A stretch of DNA of 64,000 nt from Hemileia vastatrix (Eukaryota; Basidiomycota; Pucciniomycetes; Pucciniales; Zaghouaniaceae), in contig JASXTE010000005.1 of the NCBI GenBank assembly GCA_030280995.1, positions 22,809,001 through 22,873,000 of the forward strand. Reading direction: 5' to 3'. The notes under the pieces are model-generated. The model saw nothing but the letters and a program-made list of their open reading frames with translations, was not told the origin of the DNA and ran no database searches. Of the stretch, positions 7,649-62,990 are shown in pieces; the first letter of the stretch is position 1, and each line of letters starts with the position of its first letter. The position numbers were made by a program, and so were the translations under genes.

Positions 7649-9945
7649 TCAAAAAGAAGCATTGTCAATTTCAGACATAAGGGCATGCATTTCCTTTGTA
7701 GATCTTCCTTTATATTGAACCACAGATTTACATGTGTTCAATTCTGGTTTTAATAATTTTTTAGGGGAGGAAATTTTAAATTTTCTCTTCCCATTCATCC
7801 CCATTGTGAAACATTGGTTTGAAGGATCCAATTTTATGCCATACTTGGTTAAAATATCATTCCCTACAATAAACCAATTGCTCAAGTTATCATTTTTCAT
7901 GACAACAAAATCACAAATAGCTCTTACATAACCATGGTTATATTTAAAAAACACTGTGGCTTTGTATTTACCAATGGGGGACAAAACAGATCCATACCCT
8001 CTCCAATTTTCAGAAATGATAGGCATCAGTTTAGATTTATAGTCTTGATCTACTGAAGCAAGTGCTCTTTCAGATACTACACTTCCTCCAGCTCCAGAAT
8101 CCAGAACAACTTCAATGCTGGTTCCATTTATCAAGACTGGTGCCTTAAGAGGGGCAATAACAATTGAGTTATCCTCAATGTTCTTTATGATCTCAGCATC
8201 CTTGACTGTAGATAAATCATTATTATCAATGTCAATAGTATTTAAATAATGAATATCTTCTTTCAGCATCAAGATTTCTTGCTGAGATTCATATGAAATA
8301 TTGCTGGCACAATCACTTAATGTATCAGCCAGTGCCACTGTGTCTTCAGCATGCTCCTCTGTTTTTTCTACAAGATTTATCTTCTTGTCACAAACATGGC
8401 CTTTCTGCCAAGGCTTGTTGCACTTGAAGCAAGTGTTTGTTGCATACTTCTTTGGTGCAACAGGGGCAGAAGGTTTACCAACCTTTTCCAGAGGTTTTTG
8501 TTGGTAAGTGGAGGGTTTCTCCAAAGGGGTCCTAGGAATGAATCTTCTTGCATCATACTTATTGTTTAGAAGTATCTCATTGCAAGTATTAATGAAAGAA
8601 GAGGGTTCTTTGGAGAACTCAGTCCTAGCCACAATCAAGTCTCTCAGAGACATTGGTAATTTATAGAGGATCCTGTCCTTCCATAAATCAAACTCCATAT
8701 TTGGGTCCATTTCCCTTAAGATTTTTACAAGTTTCATTAAAAACTCAATAGGTTTATCAGTAGAAGAGCTATATTTAGTTTCCTCATACTGCCTTTGTTG
8801 AGCCATTCTGAACTTTGAGCCACCAAATTGTGCTTTAATTAATTTCCTCCAATCCTCCCATGAGTAGTCATTCCCATCCAGGAGAACAGATTCATACCAC
8901 ATTAGGGCAACATTAGTGAACAAAGAAATTAATTTGGACACAATTTCCTCATCTGGGAGTTTGTAAGAATTTTTTAAATTATCAATTCTGCAAATAAATT
9001 GTTGCCAATCAGAAGAAGAATCACCATCAAATGTTGGGTACTGGTCAAGTTTTGGCCAATTCTTTTGATTTGAAGGAGTCTTTTTAGTACTAGCTTGTTT
9101 CTGAGTAAGAAGCAGCTGTAATTTCTTTAATTGTGCTGAAATCTCATTGTTTAATCCTTCTGTTGCAGCTCCTGGTGCATCATCAGTTTTTGATGGAAAC
9201 TCAGTGTTGTCAACAGGTATTTCTGGATCTATTTTTATTTTAGATGAACTAGCCACAGGTACTGGTTGAGCATCCTGCACTATATGTTCCTTCACAGAAA
9301 TGTCAGAATATTTTTGGTCATTTAACAATGAGTTCAATTTTTCTTCAATGGTTGTTAGTCTTGTTTTCATTCTTGGAAGACTAGATAAGCTTTCATTGAT
9401 AGTTGCAAAAGATAATTGATTTTTATGTTGAAAAGATGACAAATGGTCACTCAATCTTTTCAGATTTATCTTATCTATCTCTACCTCCTGGCAACAGGCA
9501 GATACAGTATCTTTTAGTTTAGACAAATCATTTTTTATATTTTGCCATAAAGCAACTTTCTTTTCATGGGTTGCTTTGTAATGAGACAATTCATCAGAGA
9601 CTCTCTGTGCTTCACTTTTTAATGCTTGATAACCCTGATCAGTTAACAAACTATTATATCTCTGTGTCAATTGCATATTGTTCATTATATGATTTTGCTT
9701 GGCAATAATATCTCTCAAGTGCTCATCATTAATTCTTGCTACATCTGGAGTGTTTCTCAATAAGGAAACTGAGTAACTTTCCAGACTCTCATAGAACTCA
9801 GGGTCAAGAGTTTCATCAATCACAGCCATATCAGGATTAATCATTGAGGTAGCAATTAAAAGTAATGTATTAGATACATGAGATATCTGTCTACTATTCC
9901 CAGCCTCTATAGGTCTCAAGGTTTTATCCTGCCTTCCAGATTTAC
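7649..9945 (-). pseudogene. gag-pol: A1 Gag capsid, zinc knuckle and aspartic protease
   Basis: Contains a coiled-coil region, the capsid-like segment (KNWPKLDQYPTFDG, DWQQFICRIDNLKNSYKLP, ALMWYESVLLDG), a zinc knuckle CFKCNKPWQKGHVC (spacing C-x2-C-x7-H-x-C) and the protease active site VVLDSGAGGSVV. It ends at TGA 7649-7651, after which RT continues in the same frame. No ATG opens the segment: because the 58-nt intron is missing, it is out of frame with both upstream frames, with an in-frame TGA just 5' of the junction. In A2 the same protein is continuous with ORF1. Confidence 0.9.
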
Positions 9946-10557
9946 CAGGGTTTGCTGGGTATCACCATATTGGGCTTCCTTCTTCTTTTGCCTCCTTGAT
10001 AAGGGTGGGGAGGAGTGGGGTTGGCCTGGGTGGGCCTTGATGGACCTACCTGAGGTAACTGATGCTGGTTTTGAGCCAAGTAGTCCCACTGAGGGTTGAG
10101 CCAGTCCCACTGCCACTTGGACACTTCCACCATCTCTTGGGATTGGGGATCCAATTGTTGTTGATCCCTGGGAGGAAGAGTTTTCTTCTTCTCTTGGAGA
10201 AAAGTATCTGTTCTTCTCACCTTTTCTTCCAAGGCATCTACCCTTACCTTTAGTCTCAAGCTGTCTGTCCTTAACTCCTTTATGTGGGTAGACAGATTCT
10301 TTACCTGCTGAGACAACAGCATCTTTTTTATCCTGAAGCCTTTTGGAAGCTCTTCTGGTGGGTTTTTCATGGGCTTCTGATCCTGAGTATTGTCCACTAG
10401 GATTTCTACTTCTTCCATCTCTACATCCTGTTTGGGGCAAGGATTTATTAGTTTGAGAAATTCTTCTTGTTAAAGGAGAACTTACAGAAGTAGGCTCATC
10501 ATAATCAATTAAGTCTAGTTCTTCTTCACGTGCAGCAAAACCACTTTGATCAGTCAT
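9916..10557 (-). CDS. A1 ORF1, N-terminal Gag extension (now uncoupled)
   Basis: 213 codons from ATG (MTDQSGFAAREEELDLIDYD…). The product is rich in Ser, Gly, Lys and Arg, low in predicted structure, with basic patches (RRASKRLQDKK, SRRQKKKEAQ). In A2 the same frame runs on into Gag; here it reads across the intron scar at 9945/9946 and stops after about ten codons (VNLEGRIKP). The +1 frame of the same DNA holds ORF2. ORF1 may be a nucleic-acid-binding Gag leader or mainly a passenger of ORF2; the sequence alone does not decide. Confidence 0.6.
   Translation of the reverse strand: MTDQSGFAAREEELDLIDYDEPTSVSSPLTRRISQTNKSLPQTGCRDGRSRNPSGQYSGSEAHEKPTRRASKRLQDKKDAVVSAGKESVYPHKGVKDRQLETKGKGRCLGRKGEKNRYFSPREEENSSSQGSTTIGSPIPRDGGSVQVAVGLAQPSVGLLGSKPASVTSGRSIKAHPGQPHSSPPLSRRQKKKEAQYGDTQQTLVNLEGRIKP
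9942..10418 (-). CDS. A1 ORF2, overprinted coiled-coil protein with KWQWDW motif
   Basis: 158 codons from ATG (MEEVEILVDNTQ…), 139 nt downstream of the ORF1 start and in its +1 frame. Residues about 30-80 form a heptad-like coiled coil (LSQQVKNLSTHIKELRTDSL, LKVRVDALEEKV). Then come VSKWQWDWLNPQWDYL, PPHPYQGGKRRRK and a terminal SKPW-stop. The same arrangement occurs in elements C and D despite strong divergence. No known domain recognised; it might be an accessory Gag-like or assembly protein. The stop TAA is supplied by the sequence that follows the removed intron. Confidence 0.7.
   Translation of the reverse strand: MEEVEILVDNTQDQKPMKNPPEELPKGFRIKKMLLSQQVKNLSTHIKELRTDSLRLKVRVDALEEKVRRTDTFLQEKKKTLPPRDQQQLDPQSQEMVEVSKWQWDWLNPQWDYLAQNQHQLPQVGPSRPTQANPTPPHPYQGGKRRRKPNMVIPSKPW
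9945..9946 (-). other. A1 intron-loss junction (processed copy)
   Basis: A1 reads CCCTG directly joined to GTAAATCTGG. A2 has the same flanks separated by 58 nt starting GTACGT and ending TTCCTTCAG (60993-61050). The deletion ends fall exactly on the GT…AG boundaries, as expected if A1 descends from reverse transcription of spliced RNA. A deletion between the GTA repeats at the two ends is the alternative. Confidence 0.7.
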
Positions 10558-10654
10558 TTTAAGATTCTACTGAAATGAAGGAAAGAGACAAAAATTAATT
10601 AGTCTTTATTTTTAATTTTTATTTAACAGAAATAAAATAAAAATAATAAAAGAA

Positions 10655-20942: not shown

Positions 20943-21030
20943 ATGAGTACTCCCCAGGACAATGTAAGTGAACAGCCTGCTTATAATACCAGGTCTAAAG
21001 CTAACAAAAACATTGCTCCAGGACATAACC

Positions 21031-21486
21031 ATGGAGGGTCAGTCATACCCCCAGGCAGAGAAAATGAGCATAGAGGAAAAGGACGCCCTCTTAAAAAAGA
21101 TTACTATAAAAAAGACGTCTCCTCCTCTTCAGGATCAACTATTCCATCTGGCAAATCAGGTATTGAAGTTGGAGGAATCAAAATCCCTCATGCTCAAGGA
21201 GGTAGAGAAATTACAAAACAATTGCAAGGTAGGATTTCAGCAGATGAACCAATCATTGGCAGAGCTAAAGGGAGGCCAGCCAAGTCAGCAACCTTCTACC
21301 CCAGGAGGATCAGATCACTCCCAGGAGAAAATACTGGTAGAAAAATGGAAGTGGGATTGGTTCCATCAACAATGGGCCAGTCACAACTGCAACAAGGATC
21401 CTCCTCCTCATCAGACTTCCTCAGTTCACCCCTACAAGGAAAAACAAAGGTGCCAAAAATCAGGGCTCACAAAAATCCTGTGGTAA
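21031..21486 (+). CDS. C ORF2, overprinted coiled-coil protein with KWKWDW motif
   Basis: ATG 21031 sits in a strong context (AACCATGG), exactly 88 nt after the ORF1 ATG, as in D2, and in its +1 frame. 151 codons: MEGQSYPQAEKMSIEEKDAL, a coiled coil (LANQVLKLEESKSLMLKEVE), VEKWKWDWFHQQW, SVHPYKEKQR and a final ILW-stop, with TGGTAA overlapping the intron donor. An upstream in-frame ATG at 20968 is possible, but the MEGQ start is shared with D1/D2. Function unknown; intact here although the long Gag frame has stops. Confidence 0.7.
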   Translation: MEGQSYPQAEKMSIEEKDALLKKITIKKTSPPLQDQLFHLANQVLKLEESKSLMLKEVEKLQNNCKVGFQQMNQSLAELKGGQPSQQPSTPGGSDHSQEKILVEKWKWDWFHQQWASHNCNKDPPPHQTSSVHPYKEKQRCQKSGLTKILW

Positions 21487-37803: not shown

Positions 37804-39033
37804 CCTTCGATGCATCAACAGATAATTTGTGTCTACAATCGAGTGAATTGTCAATTTTTCAAACCTGTATCCACAATACTAAGACCCCTTCATGGCTAAC
37901 CCATGTTCCTAGTAGTCTAGGAGAGGCTGGTACAAATCTTAAAGCTGCTGAATGGTTTGTACTATGTAAAATTTACTATGTGTCAGCTTTGATACCAGTT
38001 TGGGCTATTGAAAATTCTGACGCATGAGAGATGAAGTTGATTAAATGTCTTTCACTGCTGGTTTCAATAATCAATATTCTGACTTCCTTGGAGATACGTG
38101 AAGCTCAAATTTCATCACTTCAAGGTCAGTTAAAAGATTATATGAAGTGTCTTAAAGAATTTTGGCCAGATATCAATATAAAGCCAAACATCCACTTAGC
38201 ACAACATTTTCCTGAAGTTCTGAGAAGATTTGGGCCAGCACCATCAACTGCAGCATGGGCCCACGAGCGTATAAATGGAATGTTAAGCTCCATTCCAACC
38301 AATAAGAAAACATGTATGTTTTCCTTAATTAAAGCTACTTAACTTTATTAATTTCATTTTTTTTAAAGATCAAATGGACAAGACCATTATGAAAAGGTTT
38401 ATTTTGACCGGTCAGCTTCAATCATTAATGGAAAGAACTAATGATCAATTGGAGAATGAAATGAAAAATGTCTTCAGTTCAGAGAAAAGAAAAATTCCCT
38501 CAAAATCATCTCAACTACTGTGTGAAGACTATGAATTTTGGATAGAGTATCTCAACATTATTGATGGTAAAAAAATATTTTCCAGTATTTTTACAAAAAA
38601 TCAACTATCTGTTTCATCTCAAATTCTATCACCTCAAATTATTGAAGTAGATAACTTGTTACTGGATGGAAAAAACTACTCATTATATTCAACAAATCAA
38701 GAAAATGGCAATTTTGAGGTAAATTCATCAAAAGGAAATGTTTTTGGGGTTATATTGAGAATGTGGCAGTCAACAACATTTTCAGGTCAAAATTTTATTT
38801 TATTTGGCTTATATGACATTGTGGATCCTAAAATTGAAAATCCTTATTTAAAAGCTGGGCTTAATGATTTTTGGTGTTATGATAAATGGTCAAAAAAAGT
38901 AGTTATGAATAGCAAGGAAATTATTGGTCATGTTTCAAAAACTACACATCCTAGTGGTTTTGCAAATGTTTTCTCAAATACTTGCTGTATTATATCATTA
39001 AAAAATATAGCCAGCAGCTATTCTGATTTTTAA
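37804..39033 (+). pseudogene. CACTA transposase, C-terminal part
   Basis: Reads TPSWLTHVPSSLGEAGTNLK, KAAEWFVLCKIYYVSALIPV, TGA at 38025-38027, then (same frame) NIKPNIHLAQHFPEVLRRFG, PAPSTAAWAHERINGMLSSI, PTNKKT. A 55-nt intron (38314-38368) joins this to YQMDKTIMKRFILTGQLQSL and a downstream region ending at 39033 (…GHVSKTTHPSGFANVFSNTC). The K-AAEW, KPN-H-A-H, RRFGP and HERING blocks are those following the Tnp2 catalytic core in CACTA transposases. TTCTATACACTGAACACATCTAG before 37804 looks like an intron end. The catalytic core and N-terminus are absent. Confidence 0.8.
38314..38368 (+). other. Intron in the CACTA-2 transposase (55 nt)
   Basis: GTATGT donor, CTTAAC branch-like sequence and TTTTTTTTAAAG acceptor. 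Splicing joins …NKKT to YQMDKTIMKRF in one frame, consistent with homologues where this segment is continuous. Confidence 0.65.
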
Positions 39034-44830: not shown

Positions 44831-44888
44831 CTATAAGTAATTCATTGTTAGGATTATATAATTGATCCTGAGAAGATGGATGACTTAC
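44831..44888 (-). other. D1 intron candidate (58 nt)
   Basis: Minus strand GTAAGT … CCTAACAATG … TTATAG, followed by GTAATG; same place and length as in D2. Confidence 0.65.
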
Positions 44889-45334
44889 CACGGTCTTATT
44901 CCATTTCCCCTGCCTCTCCTTGGCTTTCCCCTGTAAGGGTGACTGCTGGAGCCCTGTTGTTGAGGGTTGTTGTAGTTTTGGGTGTACCAATCCCACTTCC
45001 ATTTTCTTACTGTAATTTTTTGATCCTTCTCTTGGGCTGGAGGTGTTACTATGGAATTGTTGGGTGCCACTGTTGGTGGTTGAGCCTTTATTTCTACTAG
45101 AGCTTGATTGACTTCTACAAAACCCTGAGCTGCTCTTTTCTCCAGATTGTTTATCTGGTCCACTATATTGTTTAACCTTATTGTCAAGGTGTTCAGTAGG
45201 GTGGAGAGGGAGTGAATTTGTTCTTGTAAGGTATTTTTTGTTTTCTTTATTGATACCTGTTTTAAAAGCTTTTCCTTTTCCTCCAGAGACATTGGTGGAG
45301 TGATGGTGTTTATGGGGGACTCCTGGCCCTCCAT
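44885..45334 (-). CDS. D1 ORF2, overprinted coiled-coil protein
   Basis: 149 codons from ATG (MEGQESPINTITPPMSLEEK), 88 nt after the ORF1 start, +1 frame. Coiled coil (LQEQIHSLSTLLNTLTIRLN, IVDQINNLEKRAA), VRKWKWDWYTQNYNNP, SSHPYRGKPRRGRG, final RPW-stop. It remains open although the rest of D1 is riddled with stops, and differs from D2 ORF2 at about 21 of 149 positions, mostly conservatively. Confidence 0.75.
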   Translation of the reverse strand: MEGQESPINTITPPMSLEEKEKLLKQVSIKKTKNTLQEQIHSLSTLLNTLTIRLNNIVDQINNLEKRAAQGFVEVNQALVEIKAQPPTVAPNNSIVTPPAQEKDQKITVRKWKWDWYTQNYNNPQQQGSSSHPYRGKPRRGRGNGIRPW

Positions 45335-45422
45335 TTGAATTTCCTGTACCAGGTTTCTCAGCTCTAGGTCTTAAGCTATAAGGTTTTGCCTTATTACTTA
45401 CAATGTCATTGTTATCACACAT

Positions 45423-50649: not shown

Positions 50650-50748
50650 ATGACTGATCAAAGTGGTTTTGCTGCACGTGAAGAAGAACTAGACTTAATT
50701 TATTATGATGAGCCTACTTCTGTAAGTTCTCCTTTAACAAGAAGAATT
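50650..50748 (+). pseudogene. A2 ORF1, first 33 codons
   Basis: ATG 50650 reads MTDQSGFAAREEELDLIYYD to …TRRI, cut by D2; the frame continues at 60480 after the second GAATT. Confidence 0.9.
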
Positions 50749-52249
50749 TGTCAGGCTAGGGTCAAGTACAAGGACGTGAACTAGCTTGATTAGTCAGTTG
50801 TCTAGAAGATTTAAATGGTCCTATATGAATACTGTAGTTCTAATCCACTAAGTTGTAAAATATAATCAAATTATAAAGGTCTCAGTAATAAAATTCTCAC
50901 TATTCTTATATATGGCTTACAATCTTTATAGTTGGTAGAAAAATAGATTATATAAATTCAGATACTATTCAAAAGTCTTATAAAAGTACTAATTGATATG
51001 TATTGTAATTGGTTTGGTTATATTGGTTAATTGTAATGATAAAGAATGAAGAAATACAACCCAAAAACCTCCTCCTTTTATACACACTGAGTTCCCCAAT
51101 GATTCCCTTGATGTACCACCCAATACACAGTTAATCACGCCTCTAAACAACTAATAGACATTCCCATCAACATTCCCAGTGACCCTTGACATAATTAGAA
51201 GAGTAATAACCGCCAAAATCCTGAAATAACAAGGGAAATCCATCAAAATTAAAGAAAAAGACAAAAAGAGAGTATATGCGTATAAAACAATAATATTAAG
51301 GACTAAAGGAGACTTTTTAAGGTTAATAATAGCTTAATAATAAGGGGGATTTACTGTAGAAATAATGGGGCTAATCCTGACATTATACTACGTGAAATTC
51401 CCATTCAAAAATAACCAAAATTGACTGAGAAACCACCCAAAAACTTAAAAAAGAGCGTGAGATGTGGGGTAACTACATGCAGTTCTTGGCAGGCGCTTGC
51501 ACGGGTAAATCCTTGACTAAAATTAGGCGAGTTTAAGCGTGGTGATGAAATAAAGTGCCAAGAGTGAGGTTATTAATGAAATTAGTGCATATAAACAGGG
51601 TCAATGCATTATTAATTAAGCTAGGACACTAAATAAGCACCTGTCGCCTATTTTAGTGTGTTTCCCCACAGTGGGCGTAGAATGTGGGGTAATTATAGTG
51701 TGAAAAAGCTAACTTTGCTAAAAATGAAGCTATTCACACGGGAAAAAAGCAGGCAGTATGTGGCCAGTACACAGAAGCCATTTCTGGCATAAAAAACACC
51801 AAATTTGAAAAGTGTTAATTTTATGCATTTAAATAGCCAAATCAATAGTTCTAAATGAGCCCAATTGATCTGTCAAAGCGCAATTTTGATATTCTCAATT
51901 TTATAGCGCATATAGTCAACTTTTAAGTGAAATAAAGCGCATTTCTTGTTTTTTGCATAAAACAATGAATATAACAGCTTTAAGTGTACTTAAAAATTAT
52001 GCAGCCTTATACTTAAGGTTCTTAAGATTACCCTAACATATTCCAACTTAATATTAAGTACATAAGACCTATAAAAGGTGGATATATGCGTGTATATAAG
52101 GTGTTATAATGGCATTTTTTGTGTATTATCATAATTTTACTTATGTATACTATTTGTGTACTCTTATTTATTATTCCCATGTGTAGTTCATGTGTTTAAC
52201 ATAACTTATAAGTACTTTTTACTCAGTCCTGGAGATATACAGGCTGACA
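50749..52249 (-). repeat. D2 3' LTR (1501 bp)
   Basis: Differences seen from the other LTR: GGCAGGCG/GGAAGGCG (about 51489), TGTCAAAG/TGTCGAAG (about 51874) and GCGTGT/GCATGT (about 52088). Confidence 0.95.
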
Positions 52250-52260
52250 CTCGCCCACCC
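52250..52260 (-). promoter_or_regulatory. D2 polypurine tract
   Basis: GGGTGGGCGAG on the element strand directly before the 3' LTR. Confidence 0.75.
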
Positions 52261-52431
52261 AAAAAAAACAATAAAAAAAATGATAAGTTATACATTTTAT
52301 TTTATTTAATTTGTAATTTTCAGGTATTCAGAATAAATCTGTAGCATTAAAGATTCAACTTTAAAGAAATAAAACATAATAAAATATTATGAGTACTGGT
52401 TTTTTAACCCCTCAGCTGGTTGAACAGAAAT

Positions 52432-52558
52432 TTATTTCTGTTTAAATTTTTTAAGAAGGGTGGATAAATTAGAAATTTCTTTTTCAGGTATCCATTTATC
52501 AAATTCATTTGATTTCCCTTTAAATCTTAGTAAATACTCAGTTCCTTTTTCTTTAGTA
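52432..52558 (-). pseudogene. D2 chromodomain C-terminal half, out of frame
   Basis: CTTTCTTGAG here replaces CTTTTCTTGAG of D1, shifting the main frame, which then ends in ESLLKKKELSIY-stop at 52527. In the neighbouring frame the rest of the chromodomain is preserved (KGTEYLLRFKGKSNEFDKWI) down to TAA at 52432-52434, with the pocket Trp present. A T-run length error in the assembly is possible. Confidence 0.75.
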
Positions 52559-55500
52559 AGGATTCTTTCTTGAGTATTTTTTCAATATCTGCTTTTTCCA
52601 CAATTTCTTCAGGTTGCTTTTTAGGCCTTCCCCTTCTTTTTGGAAATAAGTCAGGATCATTTGCATGGTAAGGTTTCAATAATGAGATAGGGAAAACTGG
52701 ATGTTTCCTATCATATGGAGCATATAATATGACTTCCACTGCATTATTCCCAACCATTTTATTTACTACAAAAGGTCCTACAAAGGGATCCTTTAATTTA
52801 ACATTACCTTGTAAGTTAAAATGTAGTGTTGATATGAGGACCTCATCTCCTTTTTTAAATTCAAATTCTTTATGAGATTTGTCCCACCTTTTCTTTTCAT
52901 ATTCAAATGCTTTTTGGATGCATTCCTCTGCATGCTTCCTACACATTTGTTGCATATGAATAAAGGATTTAGTGCCAGGGTGTATATCCAACCTTGGTAG
53001 CTTATTTAAAAGATTTACTGGGGTATTTGGTACATATCCCAGCCAGAGTTCAAATGGTTTCTTCTCTGTTACAGAATGAGTTGTGCTGTTATAAGCAAAT
53101 TCAAGGCCAGGAATTAATGTTACCCAGTCATGTGTGAATTTCTCATTGTCTTTGTATTCTAATCCAAAGGCACAATATCTTCTGATCATGTCTTCAAGAG
53201 TTTGTATCATCCTCTCAGCCAGCCCATCAGTTTGTGGATGGTGTGCTGTAGACAATTTTAATTGACAACCTGATACTTCCATCAAAGATGTCCAGAACTC
53301 TGAAGTAAATTTAGGGTCTCTGTCAGAGATTATGGCTTTGGGGAACCCAGCAGTATTCATCATCTGAGTCCACCATAGTAATGCCAAGTCTTTTGCAGAT
53401 ACCTCTTTATGGGTAGGGATAAACTTACACATTTTTGTTAATCTATCCACTATTACCCAGCAAGAATTGAAACTTTCTTTTCCTGCTAATGGCAAGCCAG
53501 TTACAAAATCCATGTTTATAATTTCCCATGGAGCTTTTGGCTGCTCTATTTGTTGTAACAACCCAGCTCTCTTCCCAGTTAATCTTTTAGATTTCTGACA
53601 AGAGTCACATGTTTCAATGTATTTTTGTACATCCTCTTTCATGTTTATCCACCAGGCTGTATTTTTAACCCTTGTTAATGTTTTGTTAAAGTCAAAATGA
53701 CCAGCTAAAATGTCATCATGACAAGTACTCAACATTAACTCTTTCATAGAAGGTGGTATTACTATTACATTGCTTAACTTTTTCCTGTAATATATATATC
53801 CATCTTCAATTGATAGTTTACCTTTTTCCAACGCATTTTTATACTTTGGAGGCAAGGTTTTAATTAATGCACTCATGGAGGCATTTGTTGGATCATTAAG
53901 AATGGTAGATAGTTTAGACAAATCTTTATCAGATGAATAATTTTCCAATATAGTTTGCATAAACTCTTCTTCTAAATCCACTATATAAATCCCAAATATA
54001 TGTATAACCTCATTTTCAGGTACATAAGCTGGGTTGTCAGCATCATTTGGCAAAGGACTTCTTGATAATAAATCCACATTTGAATGCAATGTTCCTGCTC
54101 TGTGAGTGATTGTCATTCTTCCTCTGTACTCTTGTACAGCTAGTTGCCATCTAAACATGTGCCTATTAGGTGTTTTCATGTTTAGTAATGATTTTACTGC
54201 ACTGCAATCTGTTATAAGTTCAAACTTCTGGTCTTCCAGATAGTAATGAAGTTTCTCCAAAGCCCACACCACGGCTAAACATTCTAGCTGTGTGGCACCA
54301 TACCTTAGTTCTGTCTTTCTTAAGGTTCTGGATATATAACAGATAACTACTTCAGATAATTTTCCATTTATTATCTGTTTTTGCTGTAAAGCAGCACCCA
54401 AACCTATGAAACTTGCATCAGTGTACAAGATAAAAGGTAGGGTGAAATCTGGCAGTCCCAATATTGGAGCTGACATTAAACATTCCTTTAATTTGTTAAA
54501 GGCGTGCTGTCTTTCATTATTCCAAATGAAAGCTTCATTCTTCCTGATTAATGTTGTTAAAGGGGCTGCAATGGATTGGTAATTTTTAATATATTGTCTA
54601 TAATATCCACACATACCCAAAAAACTTTGAACCTCTTTTACATTTTTAGGTATCCCAATGTTTTTAATTGCTGCCACTTTATTCTGGTCAACACAAATTT
54701 GTAATCCAGATACAACATGTCCAAGTACTTTCAAGGATTGAAATCCAAACTTACATTTCTTTAATGCAATAGTCATATTAATTTCATCCATTTTTTGAAA
54801 GACTCTTTTCAGGTGATTTAAATGTTCATCATATGTTTTTGAAAACACTATGATGTCATCAATATAGACCAATAGCCATCCTTCAACCATTTCCTGATGA
54901 AAAACACTATCCATCAATTTTTGGAAGACTGAAGGGGCATTCTTTGGGCCAAATGGCATTCTCACATACTTATATATACCCATATGTGTGGTTATTAATA
55001 AGTAATTTTGAGAATCTCTTTCCACAGGAATCTGGTGGTAACCCTTGTTCCCATCCAGACAGGAAATATATTTTGCTCCTTGTAAGGTAGCATGGATAGA
55101 AGCTATCCTTGGTAGAGGGTAAATATCATCTACTGTATATGTATTCAGAGCTCTATAATCACCACATAATCTTGCCTTATCTTTTTCATAAGAGATTAAT
55201 ACTGGTGAAATGACACAATACTTAGGTGTTGTGTCCACTTTTTCAACAATACCCATTTCCAACAACAATTTTATATTGTCTTCAATATCTTTCCTTTTTG
55301 CAGGAGATGCTGGGTAAGGTTTCTTTTTTAAGCTGCCAGGAATATTATCCAAATCACAGCTTAAAGAGATTTTCATCTCATGGTCTTTGACCAATCCTAG
55401 TTCATTTGAGCCATGAGCAAATGCCATAGGATATGATTTAATCAATCTCAAAATATCTTCTTGTTCAATATTTGAGAGTTGAGGACTGAAAGAGGCTTTT

Positions 55501-58304
55501 TGGATTTCATTTTCCAATTCACCCACTTCATTGGTGGTTCTTCCACCTTGCAGTTGTTCTTCTCTAGGAGAAATGGCATATACTGAATTTTCAGAACATA
55601 TTTTGAATTTCCTTTTACCATTCACCCCTATGGTGAAACAACTGTTTGCAGGATCTAGTTTAATGCCAAATTTTGTCAATAAATCATTGCCAATAATAAA
55701 CCAATCACTACAATTATTATTATCCATTACTACAAATTCACAAACTGCTCTAACATATCCATTATTATATTTAAAGAATACAGCAGTTTTGTATTTGCCA
55801 ATTGGATTTAATACTGAACCAAAACCCCTCCAGTTCTTTGTCTGAACAGGTTCTAGTTTTTCCTGGTACTTACTATCAAGTTTCATTAATGCATTAAGTG
55901 AAACTACACTACCTGCAGCCCCAGTGTCAAGAATGGCATTCATTTCTTTTCCACATATGATAATAGGTGCTCTGATAGGTGTTATTTTGTAAGTATCATG
56001 AGATACATCTTTAATTATTTCAGCTTCCTCTATGGAAGTTAAAGATGTGTCTGTATGAGGTATAGCATCATTCAGGAACATTATATCCTGTTCTAATACA
56101 AATATCTCATTTTCATCATCACTGTAAGATATGTTACTCTTGCAATCCTCACTGGATTCCACATTCTCATCTTCATGATTACTAGGTTCAGAATTCTGTG
56201 AGGTTTCAATAACATTTATTCTTTTCTTACACGTGTGACCTTTAACCCAAGGTTCATTACATTTGTAACAAGTGTTATTTTCTTGTCTCTTAGGGACAAG
56301 GGGAGCTGAAGGTTTTTTCTTTTCCACTGGTAACTTACTTGTAGTAGGTTTTACCACTTCAACACTTTGTCTGTAATTACTATACTTGGTTTCATATTTG
56401 TGGTTTAATAATATCTCATTGCATATATTAATGAATCCAGAGGTGTCTCTGACAGTTTCAGTTCTAGCTACAATAATGTCTCTAACTGATATAGGCAACT
56501 TGTATATTATTTTTTCTTTCCACTCTTCATAATCCATTTTTGGATCCATAGCTTTCATGATTTTTATTAAATTCATTAAGAAGACCATGGGTTTATCTCC
56601 AGCATTTGGATTATATCTGGCCCTTTCATACAGTCTTTGTTGAGTGATTCTAAATTTTGGGCCACCAAATTGCCTTTCAATTAGTGCCTTCCATTCATTC
56701 CAGGAGTAATTAATTCCCTCACTCAATACAGATTCAAACCATAATAAGGCCACATCTGTAAATAAAGATATTAACTTTGAAGTAATTTCTTCATCAGGTA
56801 ATTTGTATGAAAATTTTAGGTTATCAATTCTTTGTATGAATTGTTGCCAATCAGATTTTGAATCCCCGTCAAAAGAAGGGTACTGATCTAACTTAGGCCA
56901 GTTCTTTTGGCTAGTTTTTGCTTCCCTAACCTGAGGAATATTGAGTAATTCACTTACTTTAGAAAGATGATCATTTATTTCATCTTTTACTGATTTTATA
57001 TTCTCAGAGCCCATGACACTATGTTCATGTTCCATCATTGGTTTATCCTCAGAGTGTTTCATAAAAACTGGTACTCTTTCTACATAAGAGGTATTATCCT
57101 TTATTGTTTCAGTATTTTTCAAAATGTTAGCTACTTCAATTTCTACCCTTTGTAACCTATCTTTTATTACAGGTACTTGAGTCAAAGTATCATTTACATT
57201 TGAAAAAGACAATTTTACACGTCCCTCTATGGTAGCCATAATATTCTGAGAGTGTTCTAATTTACTTTCTAAATTTCTAATCTCAGATTTTAATCTTTTA
57301 TTCTCATTGATTAATTCATTATTTGAATTTTCAATAATTTTTAATTTATTGGCTGTGGTACTCAATGATTGTGTTAGCTGTAATAATACATTTTCTGTAT
57401 TTATGTTTGACTCTTTTGAGAACTCTTCCAATTTTTCAATTCTCAATAATAATTTACTTATTATTTTTGATTCCATTGGATTCTCTTTTAAAAAATATTC
57501 TATTTTTTCTGTGTCCAATTCAGAAGACTCATTTTCAGGGTCAAGATTTAATTCATTTGATTCCATTTTTATATTAATAGTATTTTCCTGGTGATCCATA
57601 AAACTATTTACATTGTCCTCATGTAAAGACAAGTTTAACATATTCTGTTCAAATGAATAATCCTTTAAATCCTTATCAATAATATCCAATATTTCCTTAT
57701 CAATCTCATTACCTATAAGTAATTTATTGTCAGGTTGATATAATTGATCATAAGAAGTTGGATGACTTACCAAGGTCTTATCCCACTTCCTCTGCCTCTC
57801 CTTGCCTTTCCCCTGTAAGGGTGACTGCTGGAGCCCTGCTGTTGAGGATTTTTGTAGTTTTGGGCGTACCAATCCCATTTCCATTTGCTTACTGTAATTT
57901 TTTGGTCCTCCTCTTGGGCTGGAGGTGTTGCTATGGAATTGTTGGGTGCCACTGTTGGTGGTTGAGTCTTTATGTCCACTAGAGCTTGGTTGACTTCTAT
58001 GAAACCTTGAGCTGCTCTCTTTTCCAGATTGTTGATCTGGTCCACTATATTGTTGACTCTTACTGTCAAGGTGTTCATTAGGGTGGATAGGGAGTGAACT
58101 TGTTCTTGTAATGTATTTTTTGATTTCTTTATTGAAACCTGCTTTAGAAGCTTTTCCCTTTCCTCCAGAGACATTGACGGAGTGTTGTTTATTATGGGAG
58201 AGTCCTGGCCCTCCATTTGAATGTCCTGTAACAGGTCTTTCAGCTCTAGGTCTTAAGTTATAAGGTTTTGCCTTATTACTTACAATGTCATTGTTGTCAC
58301 ACAT
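52527..58304 (-). CDS. gag-pol: D2 ORF1-Gag-Pol polyprotein, 1925 aa
   Basis: ATG at 58304 (MCDNNDIVSNKAKPYNLRPR). Rough order: basic low-complexity ORF1 part 1-178; intron-derived peptide 179-197 if unspliced; coiled coil about 290-400; capsid about 466-650 (NWPKLDQYPSFDGDSKSDW); zinc knuckle CYKCNEPWVKGHTC about 679; protease ILDTGAAGSVV about 791; RT about 985-1165 with VYIDDIIVFS about 1145; RNase H from LYTDASFIGLGAAL about 1292; integrase zinc region about 1528-1567 and D,D35E about 1598, 1661, 1697; truncated chromodomain at the end. Gag and Pol share one frame with no frameshift. Every catalytic motif I can see is intact. The polyprotein drives cytoplasmic particle assembly, reverse transcription and nuclear integration. 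Confidence 0.95.
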   Translation of the reverse strand: MCDNNDIVSNKAKPYNLRPRAERPVTGHSNGGPGLSHNKQHSVNVSGGKGKASKAGFNKEIKKYITRTSSLPIHPNEHLDSKSQQYSGPDQQSGKESSSRFHRSQPSSSGHKDSTTNSGTQQFHSNTSSPRGGPKNYSKQMEMGLVRPKLQKSSTAGLQQSPLQGKGKERQRKWDKTLVSHPTSYDQLYQPDNKLLIGNEIDKEILDIIDKDLKDYSFEQNMLNLSLHEDNVNSFMDHQENTINIKMESNELNLDPENESSELDTEKIEYFLKENPMESKIISKLLLRIEKLEEFSKESNINTENVLLQLTQSLSTTANKLKIIENSNNELINENKRLKSEIRNLESKLEHSQNIMATIEGRVKLSFSNVNDTLTQVPVIKDRLQRVEIEVANILKNTETIKDNTSYVERVPVFMKHSEDKPMMEHEHSVMGSENIKSVKDEINDHLSKVSELLNIPQVREAKTSQKNWPKLDQYPSFDGDSKSDWQQFIQRIDNLKFSYKLPDEEITSKLISLFTDVALLWFESVLSEGINYSWNEWKALIERQFGGPKFRITQQRLYERARYNPNAGDKPMVFLMNLIKIMKAMDPKMDYEEWKEKIIYKLPISVRDIIVARTETVRDTSGFINICNEILLNHKYETKYSNYRQSVEVVKPTTSKLPVEKKKPSAPLVPKRQENNTCYKCNEPWVKGHTCKKRINVIETSQNSEPSNHEDENVESSEDCKSNISYSDDENEIFVLEQDIMFLNDAIPHTDTSLTSIEEAEIIKDVSHDTYKITPIRAPIIICGKEMNAILDTGAAGSVVSLNALMKLDSKYQEKLEPVQTKNWRGFGSVLNPIGKYKTAVFFKYNNGYVRAVCEFVVMDNNNCSDWFIIGNDLLTKFGIKLDPANSCFTIGVNGKRKFKICSENSVYAISPREEQLQGGRTTNEVGELENEIQKASFSPQLSNIEQEDILRLIKSYPMAFAHGSNELGLVKDHEMKISLSCDLDNIPGSLKKKPYPASPAKRKDIEDNIKLLLEMGIVEKVDTTPKYCVISPVLISYEKDKARLCGDYRALNTYTVDDIYPLPRIASIHATLQGAKYISCLDGNKGYHQIPVERDSQNYLLITTHMGIYKYVRMPFGPKNAPSVFQKLMDSVFHQEMVEGWLLVYIDDIIVFSKTYDEHLNHLKRVFQKMDEINMTIALKKCKFGFQSLKVLGHVVSGLQICVDQNKVAAIKNIGIPKNVKEVQSFLGMCGYYRQYIKNYQSIAAPLTTLIRKNEAFIWNNERQHAFNKLKECLMSAPILGLPDFTLPFILYTDASFIGLGAALQQKQIINGKLSEVVICYISRTLRKTELRYGATQLECLAVVWALEKLHYYLEDQKFELITDCSAVKSLLNMKTPNRHMFRWQLAVQEYRGRMTITHRAGTLHSNVDLLSRSPLPNDADNPAYVPENEVIHIFGIYIVDLEEEFMQTILENYSSDKDLSKLSTILNDPTNASMSALIKTLPPKYKNALEKGKLSIEDGYIYYRKKLSNVIVIPPSMKELMLSTCHDDILAGHFDFNKTLTRVKNTAWWINMKEDVQKYIETCDSCQKSKRLTGKRAGLLQQIEQPKAPWEIINMDFVTGLPLAGKESFNSCWVIVDRLTKMCKFIPTHKEVSAKDLALLWWTQMMNTAGFPKAIISDRDPKFTSEFWTSLMEVSGCQLKLSTAHHPQTDGLAERMIQTLEDMIRRYCAFGLEYKDNEKFTHDWVTLIPGLEFAYNSTTHSVTEKKPFELWLGYVPNTPVNLLNKLPRLDIHPGTKSFIHMQQMCRKHAEECIQKAFEYEKKRWDKSHKEFEFKKGDEVLISTLHFNLQGNVKLKDPFVGPFVVNKMVGNNAVEVILYAPYDRKHPVFPISLLKPYHANDPDLFPKRRGRPKKQPEEIVEKADIEKILKKESLLKKKELSIY
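57713..57770 (-). other. D2 intron candidate (58 nt)
   Basis: Element strand CCTTG then GTAAGTCATCC … AACCTGACAATAA … CTTATAG, followed by GTAATGAG. Good donor, CTGAC branch site and acceptor; length 3n+1. Unspliced, ORF1 continues into Gag; spliced, ORF1 changes frame, whereas ORF2 ends TGG-TAA either way. Confidence 0.7.
57767..58216 (-). CDS. D2 ORF2, overprinted coiled-coil protein
   Basis: 149 codons from ATG, 88 nt inside ORF1 in its +1 frame (MEGQDSPIINNTPSMSLEER). Residues about 20-70 are heptad-like (LQEQVHSLSTLMNTLTVRVN, IVDQINNLEKRAA); about 107-120 VSKWKWDWYAQNY; about 131-144 SSHPYRGKARRGRG; last residues IRPW. No signal peptide or membrane segment. No family recognised. Leaky scanning past the ORF1 ATG could give access to it. 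Intact in an apparently recent element. Confidence 0.75.
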   Translation of the reverse strand: MEGQDSPIINNTPSMSLEEREKLLKQVSIKKSKNTLQEQVHSLSTLMNTLTVRVNNIVDQINNLEKRAAQGFIEVNQALVDIKTQPPTVAPNNSIATPPAQEEDQKITVSKWKWDWYAQNYKNPQQQGSSSHPYRGKARRGRGSGIRPW

Positions 58305-58958
58305 TTCACGTGGAATTTAAAGAATTTTGAGAATTTAGATATAAAACTTCAAGAAGGAGTTTTATCAGTATTTATCAATACCCCTGAAGACAATCTTATT
58401 GCTTACTTATTGGTATTAAGTGAATATTTAAGTGCCAAAAGTCAAATATGCTTTTATGTGGTCACTTGATTTAACTGGTCTACAATATGTAGCCGTGTTT
58501 TTATATTTAAAAGAAAACAACTGTCAGTATGATTCTTTCTAAATATTTAAAGAATTCTACAAACCAATAAAAGAAAAGATTAAGAGTCCTGTTAAAAGAA
58601 AACAATTAATCAGTTTAATTGGTTTATTATCTGCAAAGATCACAAATTTAATTGGTCTATTGACAGACTCCCACTAAGAACAATTATATGTTAAATTAGT
58701 GGTAAAAATTTTATCTGCAAAGATCTCAAATTTAATTGGTCTATTAACAGACCCACTAATAACAATTATAAGTTAAATTAGTGGTAAAATTGTTGATTCA
58801 ATATCACAATTTTATAATATAACAGGGCTTCTTTTTCTGAAATCACTATATAAGTGACCCCAACCTGTTGTAATTATCCAAATATTTTTATAGGGATATT
58901 ATTTACGTGCACCTTCTCTTGAAAATTTTACTTACCAGGATTATAACAGAATTCTTGA
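58305..58958 (-). other. D2 leader with tandem duplication
   Basis: A block beginning TTATCTGCAAAGATC and ending AATTAGTGGTAAAA occurs twice (about 58628-58710 and 58711-58794); D1 has it once. Each copy holds a CCACTAA…TTAGTGG inverted pair. Confidence 0.7.
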
Positions 58959-58971
58959 GGAAAGGTCCCCA
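58959..58971 (-). promoter_or_regulatory. D2 primer-binding site candidate
   Basis: Element strand TGGGGACCTTTCC, two nt inside the 5' LTR. Confidence 0.65.
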
Positions 58972-58973
58972 AT

Positions 58974-60474
58974 TGTCAGGCTAGGGTCAAGTACAAGGAC
59001 GTGAACTAGCTTGATTAGTCAGTTGTCTAGAAGATTTAAATGGTCCTATATGAATACTGTAGTTCTAATCCACTAAGTTGTAAAATATAATCAAATTATA
59101 AAGGTCTCAGTAATAAAATTCTCACTATTCTTATATATGGCTTACAATCTTTATAGTTGGTAGAAAAATAGATTATATAAATTCAGATACTATTCAAAAG
59201 TCTTATAAAAGTACTAATTGATATGTATTGTAATTGGTTTGGTTATATTGGTTAATTGTAATGATAAAGAATGAAGAAATACAACCCAAAAACCTCCTCC
59301 TTTTATACACACTGAGTTCCCCAATGATTCCCTTGATGTACCACCCAATACACAGTTAATCACGCCTCTAAACAACTAATAGACATTCCCATCAACATTC
59401 CCAGTGACCCTTGACATAATTAGAAGAGTAATAACCGCCAAAATCCTGAAATAACAAGGGAAATCCATCAAAATTAAAGAAAAAGACAAAAAGAGAGTAT
59501 ATGCGTATAAAACAATAATATTAAGGACTAAAGGAGACTTTTTAAGGTTAATAATAGCTTAATAATAAGGGGGATTTACTGTAGAAATAATGGGGCTAAT
59601 CCTGACATTATACTACGTGAAATTCCCATTCAAAAATAACCAAAATTGACTGAGAAACCACCCAAAAACTTAAAAAAGAGCGTGAGATGTGGGGTAACTA
59701 CATGCAGTTCTTGGAAGGCGCTTGCACGGGTAAATCCTTGACTAAAATTAGGCGAGTTTAAGCGTGGTGATGAAATAAAGTGCCAAGAGTGAGGTTATTA
59801 ATGAAATTAGTGCATATAAACAGGGTCAATGCATTATTAATTAAGCTAGGACACTAAATAAGCACCTGTCGCCTATTTTAGTGTGTTTCCCCACAGTGGG
59901 CGTAGAATGTGGGGTAATTATAGTGTGAAAAAGCTAACTTTGCTAAAAATGAAGCTATTCACACGGGAAAAAAGCAGGCAGTATGTGGCCAGTACACAGA
60001 AGCCATTTCTGGCATAAAAAACACCAAATTTGAAAAGTGTTAATTTTATGCATTTAAATAGCCAAATCAATAGTTCTAAATGAGCCCAATTGATCTGTCG
60101 AAGCGCAATTTTGATATTCTCAATTTTATAGCGCATATAGTCAACTTTTAAGTGAAATAAAGCGCATTTCTTGTTTTTTGCATAAAACAATGAATATAAC
60201 AGCTTTAAGTGTACTTAAAAATTATGCAGCCTTATACTTAAGGTTCTTAAGATTACCCTAACATATTCCAACTTAATATTAAGTACATAAGACCTATAAA
60301 AGGTGGATATATGCATGTATATAAGGTGTTATAATGGCATTTTTTGTGTATTATCATAATTTTACTTATGTATACTATTTGTGTACTCTTATTTATTATT
60401 CCCATGTGTAGTTCATGTGTTTAACATAACTTATAAGTACTTTTTACTCAGTCCTGGAGATATACAGGCTGACA
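58974..60474 (-). repeat. D2 5' LTR (1501 bp)
   Basis: Near-identical to 50749-52249. TATAAAAGG on the element strand at 59299-59307 is the likely core promoter. Confidence 0.95.
59299..59307 (-). promoter_or_regulatory. TATA box in the D2 5' LTR
   Basis: GTGTATAAAAGGAGG on the element strand, conserved in both D1 LTRs. Confidence 0.6.
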
Positions 60475-60519
60475 GAATTTCTCAAACTAATAAATCCTTG
60501 CCCCAAACAGGATGTAGAA

Positions 60520-60992
60520 ATGGAAGAAGTAGAAATCCTAGTGGACAATACTCAGGATCAGAAGCCCAGGACAAACCTACCAGAAGAGCTTCCAAAAGGC
60601 TTCAAGATAAAAAAGATGCCGTTGTCCCAGCAGATAAAGAATCTGTCAACCCACATAAAGGAGTTAAAGACAGACAGCTTGAAACTAAAGGTAAGGGTAG
60701 ATGCCTTGGAAGAAAGGGGGAAAATAACAGATACTTTTCTCCAAGAGAAAAGGAAACCTCTTCCTCCCAGTGATCAACAACAATTGGCTCCCCAATCCCA
60801 AGAGATGGTGGAAGTGTCCAAGTGGCAGTGGGACTGGCTCAACACACAGTGGGACTACTTGGCTCAAAATCAGCATCAGTTACCTCAGGTAGGTCCATCA
60901 AGGCCCACCCAGGCCAACCCCACTCCTCCCCACCCTTATCAAGGAGGCAAAAGAAGAAGGAAGCCCAATATGGTGATACCCAGCAAACCCTG
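60520..60992 (+). CDS. A2 ORF2, overprinted coiled-coil protein
   Basis: ATG 60520 (MEEVEILVDNTQDQKPRTNL); coiled coil (LSQQIKNLSTHIKELKTDSL), VSKWQWDWLNTQWDYL, PPHPYQGGKRRRK, SKPW at the intron border. The donor is GTACGT rather than GTAAGT, so unspliced RNA reads on for about 28 extra codons to 61080; spliced RNA would stop right after the Trp, as in A1. It lacks the stop that breaks ORF1 at 60771. Confidence 0.7.
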
Positions 60993-61050
60993 GTACGTCC
61001 CTCTATTGATTCTCAAGTGCCTTTTCATGTGGCTGACTCTGTTCCTTCAG
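60993..61050 (+). other. A2 intron (58 nt), absent from A1
   Basis: GTACGT donor, GGCTGACTCTG branch region, TTCCTTCAG acceptor. A1 (9945/9946) joins the flanks exactly. Confidence 0.75.
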
Positions 61051-62990
61051 GTAAATCTGGAAGGCAGGATGAAACCTTGAGACCTATAGAAGCTGGGAAT
61101 AGTAGACAGTTATCTCATGTATCCAATCCATTACTTTTAATTGCTACCTCAATGATTAATCCTGATATGGCTGTGATTGATGAAACTCTTGACCCTGAGT
61201 TCTATGAGAGTCTGGAAAGTTACTCAGTTTCCCTATTGAGAAACACTCCAGATGTAGCAAGAATTAATGATGAGCACTTGAGAGATATTATTGCCAAGCA
61301 AAATCATATAATGAACAATGTGCAATTGACACAGAGATATAATAGTTTGTTAACTGATCAGGGTTATCAAGCATTAAAAAGTGAAGCACAGAGAGTCTCT
61401 GATGAATTGTCTCATTACAAAGTAACCCATGAAAAGAAAATTGCTTTATGGCAAAATATAAAAAATGATTTGTCTAAACTAAAAGATACTGTATCTGCCT
61501 GTTGCCAGGAGGTAGAGATAGATAAGATAAATCTGAAAAGATTGAGTGACCATTTGTCATCTTTTCAACATAAAAACCAATTATCTTTTGCAACTATCAA
61601 TGAAAGTTTATCTAGTCTTCCAAGAATGAAAACAAGACTAAAAACCATTGAAGAAACATTGAACTCATTGTTAAATGACCAAAAATATTCTGACAATTCT
61701 GTGAAGGAACATATAGTGCAGGATGCTCAACCAGTACCTGTGGCTAGTTCATCTAAAATAAAAATTGATCCAGAAATACCTGTTGATAACACTGAGTTTC
61801 CATCAAAAACTGATGATGCACCAGGATCTGCAACAGAAGGATTAAACAATGATATTTCAGCACAATTAGAGAAATTACAGCTGCTTCTTACTCAGAAACA
61901 AGCTAGTACTAAGGAGACTCCTTCAAATCAAAAGAATTGGCCAAAACTTGAACAGTACCCAACATTTGATGGTGATTCTTCCTCTGATTGGCAACAATTT
62001 ATTTGCAGAATTGATAATTTAAAAAATTCTTACAAACTCCCAGATGAGGAAATTGTGTCCAAATTAATTTCTTTGTTCACTAATGTTGCCCTGATGTGGT
62101 ATGAATCTGTTCTCCTGGATGGGAATGACTACTCATGGGAGGATTGGAAGAAATTAATTAAAGCACAATTTGGTGGCTCCAAGTTCAGAATGGCTCAACA
62201 GAGGCAGTATGAGGAAACTAGATATAGCTCTTCTACTGATAAACCTATTGAGTTTTTAATGAAACTTGTAAAAATCTTAAGGGCAATGGATATAAATATT
62301 GAGTTTGATTTATGGAAGGACAGGATCCTCTATAAATTACCAATGTCTCTGAGAGACTTGATTGTGGCTAGGACTGAGTTCTCCAAAGAACCCTCTTCTT
62401 TCATTAATACTTGCAATGAGATACTTCTAAACAATAAGTATGATGCAAGATTCATTCCTAGGACCCCTTTTGAGAAACCCTCCACTTACCAACAAAAACC
62501 TCTGGAAAAGGTTGGTAAACCTTCTGCCCCTGTTGCACCAAAGAAGTATGCAACAAACACTTGCTTCAAGTGCAACAAGCCTTGGCAGAAAGGCCATGTT
62601 TGTGACAGGAAGATAAATCTTGTAGAACAAACAGAGGAGCATGCTGATGACACAGTGGCACTGGATGATACATCAAGTGATTGTGCCAGCAATATTTCAT
62701 ATGAATCTCAACAAGAAATCTTGATGCTGGAAGAAGATATTCATTATTTAAATACTATTGACATTGATAATAATGATTTATCTACAGTTGAGGATGCTGA
62801 GATCATAAAGAACATTGAGGATAACTCAATTGTTATTGCCCCTCTTAAGGCACCAGTCTTGATCAATGGAACCAGCATTGAAGTTGTTCTGGATTCTGGA
62901 GCTGGAGGAAGTGTAGTATCTGAAAGAGCACTTGCCTCAGTAGATCAAGACTATAAATCTAAACTGTTGCCTATCATTTCTGAAGATTGA

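What the first reader, a model, noticed from the sequence alone, without database searches (positions are those of the whole stretch)
57767..58216. A second, overprinted gene (ORF2) inside gag, shared by three chromovirus families
In A1, A2, C, D1 and D2 an ATG-started frame of about 149-158 codons lies in the +1 frame of ORF1, starting 88 nt (C, D1, D2) or 139 nt (A1) downstream. Across families the products share a charged start, a coiled coil, V-x-KW-K/Q-WDW, an HPY-x-G/E-K basic stretch and a terminal Trp. D1 and D2 ORF2 differ at about 21 of 149 residues, mostly conservative (I/V, E/D, K/R), while ORF1 over the same DNA differs at about 38, many radical. ORF2 is open in all five copies, including dead D1. 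I know of no described Ty3/gypsy accessory gene in this position; that novelty claim is inference.
Basis: partly seen in the sequence, partly recalled or inferred. Interest (0 to 1): 0.92.

Follow-up and report, generated by a model that had tools for sequence, protein, structure and literature searches.

The report
Spliced second protein hidden in gag
A family of jumping genes carries one stretch of DNA that is open in two reading frames: the uncut RNA would encode its usual coat-and-enzyme protein, while RNA with a 58-base intron removed would encode a second, strongly conserved small protein that likely helps handle the element's own RNA.

Summary
In detail: a second open frame (149-158 codons) overlaps the start of gag-pol in D1, D2, C, A1 and A2, and it is strongly conserved. 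Among 46 D-family rows (38 picked by gag score, D1, D2, six picked by a junction word), internal-branch changes at ORF2 codon positions 1,2,3 are 30,27,103; terminal branches give 56,63,67.

The interpretation changes. ORF2's ATG is probably not its start. D1, D2, C and A1 each hold a 58-nt GTAAGT...AG intron between the gag ATG and ORF2; removing it puts the gag start codon in frame with ORF2 (159, 159, 161, 185 aa). A second intron (58 or 52 nt) begins inside ORF2's last Trp codon, so that Trp overlaps a splice donor. Copies lacking exactly these introns occur in the genome: intron 1 at 31 places (A family); intron 2 at 29 (A) and 6 (D). Against: 0 intron-1-minus D copies, 0 intron-2-minus C copies; C intron 1 unanswered.

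Best reading: unspliced RNA encodes gag-pol, spliced RNA a coiled-coil, basic-tailed protein. Nearest analogue: CERV of C. elegans Cer1. Its job is inferred; no RNA or protein data were seen.

The parts
50748..60474 (-). D2 element, LTRs 50748-52249 and 58973-60474 (99.8% alike), inserted inside intron 1 of element A2
   Evidence: blastn of the LTRs; flanks read (target duplication GAATT by eye)
52527..58304 (-). D2 ORF1: unspliced gag-pol frame, 1925 aa, both introns read as coding
   Evidence: Pfam RT, RNase H, integrase zinc domain above cut-off
58284..58304 (-). D2 exon 1 (gag ATG, 7 codons MCDNNDI)
58226..58283 (-). D2 intron 1, 58 nt, GTAAGT...ACAG; in the unspliced frame it encodes VSNKAKPYNLRPRAERPVTG
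   Evidence: donor GTAAGT in 43 of 46 D rows, acceptor CAG in 46 of 46; no intron-1-minus D copy found
57771..58225 (-). D2 exon 2: DIQ plus ORF2 up to the first two bases of the Trp codon
   Evidence: positional constraint
57767..58216 (-). D2 ORF2 as given (ATG to TAA); predicted coiled coil residues 36-84, WxW helix 102-121, basic tail
57713..57770 (-). D2 intron 2, 58 nt, GTAAGT...TTATAG; its donor overlaps ORF2's Trp-stop, and exon 3 starts GTAA so the stop is rebuilt after splicing
   Evidence: 6 intron-2-minus D copies
45344..45401 (-). D1 intron 1, 58 nt
44885..45334 (-). D1 ORF2, 149 aa
44831..44888 (-). D1 intron 2, 58 nt
   Evidence: one D1-type spliced junction among the 6
20964..21021 (+). 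C intron 1, 58 nt, GTAAGT...CTCCAG
   Evidence: junction search in the genome did not complete
21031..21486 (+). C ORF2, 151 aa
21483..21534 (+). C intron 2, 52 nt, GTAAGT...ATGTAG
   Evidence: spliced-junction search found 0
10428..10485 (-). A1 intron 1, 58 nt, GTAAGT...AAACAG (retained in A1)
   Evidence: 31 intron-1-minus A-type junctions in the genome
9942..10418 (-). A1 ORF2, 158 aa; A1 is intron-2-minus (junction between 9946 and 9945)
60520..61080 (+). A2 ORF2 reading through retained intron 2 (186 aa)
60993..61050 (+). A2 intron 2, 58 nt, GTACGT...GGCTGACTCTGTTCCTTCAG
50722..50747 (+). A2 intron 1, 5' part with donor GTAAGT, cut by the D2 insertion (rest of the intron at about 60475-60510)

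Best explanation
In these Ty3/gypsy elements ORF2 is most likely exon 2 of a spliced accessory gene that starts at the gag ATG, lies wholly on top of gag, and is translated in a different frame once a 58-nt intron is removed. Shown from sequence: the intron has GTAAGT and AG ends in D1, D2, C and A1; its removal fuses the gag start codon in frame to ORF2; a second intron starts inside ORF2's last codon; A-family copies with exactly the intron-1 junction, and A and D copies with exactly the intron-2 junction, exist in the genome; ORF2 codons are under strong purifying selection. Inferred: such copies are reverse-transcribed spliced RNAs, so splicing occurs; unspliced RNA serves as genome and gag-pol mRNA, and intron-1-spliced RNA makes the small protein. 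Inferred, and less sure (about 0.35): the protein, a predicted coiled coil followed by a Trp-rich helix and a Lys/Arg tail, binds and multimerises on the element's unspliced RNA and favours its export or protects it from splicing, as Rev and CERV do for their elements.
For: Intron 1 is 58 nt with GTAAGT in four of four window copies with an intact start; GTAAGT occurs 0.367 times per kb per strand in the window. Spliced frames run open to the shared Trp-stop: 159, 159, 161, 185 aa. Genome junctions: intron 1, A-type, 31 places, 0 in the reversed-pattern control; 7 of the 31 were read (L034, L116, L165-L169): all 7 lack exactly the intron, and 5 give an ORF from the gag ATG across the junction (213, 185, 93, 203, 142 aa). 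Intron 2: A 29 places, D 6 places, 0 in controls; the D junction was predicted before it was searched, and the six D copies fall on different branches. Among 161 loci scanned, large length changes at the two introns were exact losses. Three codons between acceptor 1 and the ORF2 ATG keep ORF2-frame meaning: DIQ 40 and EIQ 5 of 46 D rows, with synonymous ATC/ATT/ATA; C DIT 32 of 36 readable of 40; A DVE 33 of 33 readable of 45. Selection. Coiled coil: helix 36-84 with pLDDT mostly 84-98, a/d hydrophobic 0.93 versus 0.22, 0 of 2000 shuffles.
Against: No RNA, ribosome or protein data were available. D family: 0 intron-1-minus junctions with up to 3 mismatches, and two D rows that I had expected to be such copies keep the intron. 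C family: 0 intron-2-minus junctions; the C intron-1 search did not complete. Intron-2 flanks share 4 or more bases (GGTA), so some intron-2 losses could be microhomology deletions; intron 1 in A shares almost none. Within young A lineages the positional signal is absent or reversed: A1-A2 3,13,6; A2-L117 4,16,13; A2-L116 5,16,16. Removal of intron 2 does not change the ORF2 product in D or C, so its purpose is unclear. The export role has no direct support: no family match, no fold match.
Confidence: 0.72

Rival explanations
1. ORF2 is made from its own internal ATG on unspliced RNA by leaky scanning or reinitiation past the gag ATG; the introns are minor.
For: The ATG is present in all 46 D rows; +4 is G in the D and A loci examined, and the C window copy has an ACC context. 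A short ATG-stop frame precedes it in D, C and A1, which could allow reinitiation.
Against: Exact intron-1 junction copies in A; conserved ORF2-frame codons upstream of the ATG; the gag ATG itself has A at -3 in the D loci examined, a context usually taken as strong, while ORF2 in D has C at -3.
Confidence: 0.13
2. The spliced protein is real but works in assembly or copy control: a coiled-coil, basic nucleic-acid chaperone or gag partner, rather than an RNA export or splicing regulator.
For: Coiled coil plus basic tail suits RNA packaging or gag binding as well as export. A weak sequence match to the LINE-1 ORF1p coiled coil (E 0.2) is among many coiled-coil matches.
Against: It would not explain why its production is tied to splicing that destroys the gag-pol frame. 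No homology or structural match separates the options.
Confidence: 0.4
3. Exact intron-minus copies come from deletion or gene conversion, not from spliced RNA.
For: Intron 2 is bounded by a GGTA repeat, so one deletion could recur; some listed places may be genomic duplicates (for example C2:35639868 and C2:35698571). L034 is about 85% alike to L040 upstream of the junction and 98.6% downstream, so it may be recombinant.
Against: Losses in two families and several branches at predicted GT-AG borders; intron 1 has no such repeat; no other large deletion at these introns among 161 loci.
Confidence: 0.06

Closest known systems
CERV of Cer1, a C. elegans Ty3/gypsy element (PMC10309623; passages and section 9 read)
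   Same: A regulatory protein from a spliced mRNA of a Ty3/gypsy element that shares the gag start and then changes frame; contains a leucine zipper and a basic motif; gag-pol comes from unspliced RNA.
   Different: CERV is 517 aa from five exons, with its frame-changing exon and C-terminal half near the 3' end. Here the whole protein (159-185 aa) sits inside the first about 0.6 kb, on top of gag, with one 58-nt intron. No sequence relationship was tested; function here is inferred.
HIV-1 Rev/Tat type accessory exons (recalled)
   Same: Overlapping frames chosen by splicing; small basic multimerising protein acting on unspliced RNA (for Rev).
   Different: Different position and no homology tested; no response element sought.
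BARE1 spliced gag mRNA in barley, Ty1/copia (PMC3735527; abstract and outline read)
   Same: One-ORF LTR retrotransposon that uses a splice to make a subgenomic mRNA.
   Different: BARE's splice favours gag itself in the gag frame; here the splice abandons the gag frame.
Additional ORFs of plant LTR retrotransposons (PMC7264820; passages read)
   Same: Extra gene in an LTR retrotransposon.
CDKN2A (INK4a/ARF) type dual-frame exon (recalled)
   Same: One exon read in two frames because a different first exon or splice sets the frame.
   Different: Here the same first exon and ATG are used; retention of the intron sets the other frame.

Membership tests
Ty3/gypsy LTR retrotransposon | LTR pair around gag-pol with RT, RNase H then integrase | tested here: met
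   LTR pairs for D2, D1, A1, C; D2: RVT_1, RNase H and integrase zinc domain above Pfam cut-offs in that order; integrase core and protease below their cut-offs
Chromovirus | C-terminal chromodomain after integrase | tested here: inconclusive
   No chromodomain hit in the D2 1925-aa ORF; the A1 C-terminal ORF was not scanned
Spliced accessory gene of an LTR element (CERV-like) | Spliced mRNA joins the gag start to a different frame | tested here: met
   Met at the level of genomic spliced-junction copies in the A family; D intron 1 not seen; no RNA data
Spliced accessory gene of an LTR element (CERV-like) | Protein needed for nuclear export of unspliced RNA | not testable with these tools
   Needs RNA localisation in cells
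CERV protein family | Sequence or fold homology to CERV | not tested
   No comparison with CERV was run; the PDB fold search gave 0 matches
Leaky-scanning overlapping gene | Translation from an internal ATG without splicing | tested here: inconclusive
   ATG conserved in D rows, but upstream codons are conserved in the same frame
Purifying selection on the overlapping frame | Changes concentrate at ORF2 third positions on internal branches only | tested here: met
   D 30,27,103 internal versus 56,63,67 terminal; A 13,28,49 versus 28,22,38; not met between young A copies; C only in an ORF2-picked, biased set

The most novel reading that the evidence does not exclude
A fungal Ty3/gypsy lineage has evolved retrovirus-style regulated splicing in miniature: a Rev/CERV-like RNA regulator overprinted completely on gag, switched on by removing a 58-nt intron that otherwise encodes part of gag, with splice donors that double as codons and as its stop signal.
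Probability: 0.3. Interest if true: 0.9.

Novelty: new variant of a known kind. Interest (0 to 1): 0.78.

Why it matters
Spliced regulatory proteins are a hallmark of complex retroviruses and are known in very few LTR retrotransposons. A case where the whole protein is overprinted on gag, and where hundreds of genomic copies record which introns were removed, would give a natural record of regulated splicing in a retroelement. It would show how dual coding by intron retention evolves. It also warns that annotation that starts genes at ATGs will misread such elements: the conserved product is split between a short exon and an out-of-frame ORF.

Tried and rejected
Upstream intron from A1/A2 divergence: rejected, A2's left part lies beyond the nested D2 element. 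D intron-1-minus copies predicted from two rows with open frame 166: wrong, both keep the intron, and the genome search gave 0. Positional counts on copies picked by ORF2 score were set aside as biased: their terminal branches are skewed too in D (4,3,20). Protein relatives of ORF2: none at E 0.1 or better among 2030 candidates; Pfam below cut-offs; PDB sequence hits are generic coiled coils; PDB fold search 0 matches. Relatives of the RT region in viral contigs: none. Host as Gigaspora/Glomeromycota: dropped, because the listed RT relatives by identity are Puccinia, Rhodotorula and metagenome proteins. The amino-acid reading of relatives' gag N termini could not show introns without DNA. Splice-site constraint per site was too sparse to judge.
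Full report
What is there. The D2 element is young (LTRs 99.8% alike) with a 1925-aa gag-pol frame, and it is inserted into intron 1 of element A2. The genome (G000) has 747.6 Mb in 791 contigs. Eighteen of the contigs met in my calls exceed 25 Mb, and the RT relatives by identity include rust and other Pucciniomycotina proteins, so the host is probably a fungus, perhaps a rust; that is inference.

Is the frame conserved? D1 and D2 align without gaps over ORF2 and differ at ORF2 positions 1,2,3 by 12, 6 and 27; these are ORF1 positions 2,3,1. To avoid choosing copies by ORF2, I took 40 of the 150 rows of a gag search (rows listed, picked by hand for spread without looking at ORF2). 38 of the 40 aligned; L134 and L157 did not. 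With D1, D2 and six junction-picked copies (46 rows) the internal branches show 30,27,103 (chi-square p 8e-16) and the terminal branches, which should be mostly neutral decay, 56,63,67 (p 0.61). For 96 D2-like by D3 pairs the rate per site is 0.110 for changes silent in ORF1 but not ORF2, 0.499 for changes silent in ORF2 but not ORF1, and 0.072 for changes altering both. So ORF2 is strongly constrained and the ORF1 reading of the same DNA only weakly. In A, a junction-picked set plus A1 and A2 (12 rows) gives 13,28,49 internal and 28,22,38 terminal (p 1.8e-5 and 0.11). Young A pairs do not show the pattern: A1-A2 3,13,6, A2-L117 4,16,13 and A2-L116 5,16,16, while A2-L121 gives 15,25,55. For C I have only an ORF2-picked set (18,9,43 internal), which is biased. 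Among the 38 gag-picked D copies ORF1 is open through the fetched stretch in 26, ORF2 is full in 26, both in 21, only one of them in 5 and 5.

Where does the protein start? Comparing A1 with A2 showed a 58-nt insert in A2, exactly after ORF2's Trp codon, with GTACGT and TTCCTTCAG ends. D1, D2 and C have GTAAGT at the same codon and an AG 58 or 52 nt on, followed by GTAA, which restores Trp-stop after splicing. Retained, this intron keeps ORF1 in frame with gag; removed, it cuts ORF1 short (193, 186, 191 aa in D2, D1, C; 213 in A copy L040). I predicted the D junction and then searched for it: 6 places, 0 in the control. The A junction occurs at 29 places, 0 in the control. C gave none with up to 3 mismatches.

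A first intron lies between the gag ATG and ORF2. In D2, D1, C and A1 it is 58 nt with a GTAAGT donor, and removing it fuses the gag ATG in frame to ORF2, giving 159, 159, 161 and 185 aa. Across 161 loci intron 1 measures 58 nt in 72 of 76 D, 42 of 45 A and 38 of 40 C loci; it measures exactly 0 in A loci L034 and L116. L116 lacks both introns and holds a 185-aa ORF from the gag ATG. A genome search for the A intron-1 junction found 31 places, 0 in the control. Six of these also appear in the intron-2-minus list, and a seventh, L167, reads as lacking both. Of the 31, seven were read; all show the junction, five with an ORF from the gag ATG across it, L166 and L167 without. For D the same search gave 0. 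So intron 1 removal is recorded for A only; for D and C it rests on splice sites, frame and codon conservation. That last point: the three codons between acceptor and ORF2 ATG vary synonymously in the ORF2 frame in D (DIQ 40, EIQ 5, YIQ 1 of 46) and are DIT in 32 of 36 C loci and DVE in 33 of 33 A loci that could be read.

What is the protein? AlphaFold2 on five sequences: mean pLDDT 67.7, pTM 0.32, a long helix at 36-84 with block pLDDT mostly 84-98 and a helix at 102-121 that carries the WxW motif; tail disordered. The long helix has a clean heptad pattern (0.93 versus 0.22 hydrophobic, 0 of 2000 shuffles) and the last 19 residues of D2 have net charge +6. No Pfam family reaches its cut-off, no database relative, no PDB fold match.

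How it probably works. Established for retroviruses and for Cer1: unspliced RNA is genome and gag-pol mRNA, and intron-containing RNA needs help to leave the nucleus. Cer1's CERV is made from a spliced mRNA whose first exons share the gag frame and whose exon 4 uses another frame; without CERV the unspliced RNA is not exported (PMC10309623, section 9 read). The architecture here matches in miniature. I therefore propose, as inference, that the spliced protein multimerises by its coiled coil, binds the element's unspliced RNA with its basic tail and favours its export or spares it from splicing. An assembly or chaperone role is about as likely. Why intron 2 exists is open: it does not change the ORF2 product in D or C, but in A its removal takes off a 28-residue extension.

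Novelty. Ten literature searches in an open-licence library listed no gene of this kind on top of gag in a Ty3/gypsy element. I read passages or sections of four papers only. I rate it a new variant of a known kind: spliced accessory genes of LTR elements are known, this placement and its genomic record are not, as far as I could see.

Noticed in passing
50722-60510: Element D2 is inserted inside intron 1 of element A2, so A2's gag start lies 9.7 kb from its exon 2.
   Followed up: yes
7649-10557: A1 is an intron-2-minus copy: its ORF1 stops at 213 aa and gag restarts at an ATG (9844) in another frame.
   Followed up: partly
38374-39033: A 219-aa ORF outside the named elements has one database relative, P0121, 94% identical, on a 990-nt contig; no function found.
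   Followed up: partly
L122-L161: The D family has at least three subfamilies (about 97%, 89% and 83% identical to D2 over ORF2), with full-length frames in the D2-like and D3 groups.
   Followed up: partly
L034:1-1500: L034 is about 85% alike to L040 upstream of the intron-1 junction but 98.6% downstream, as if recombinant at the junction.
   Followed up: no
10564-10620: A strong acceptor-like pyrimidine tract and CAG sits just upstream of the A1 gag ATG; a leader intron is possible.
   Followed up: no
58226-58283: The intron-1 segment, read in the gag frame, keeps a YNLRPR-like motif in D (YNTRSK in C); its role in gag is unknown.
   Followed up: no
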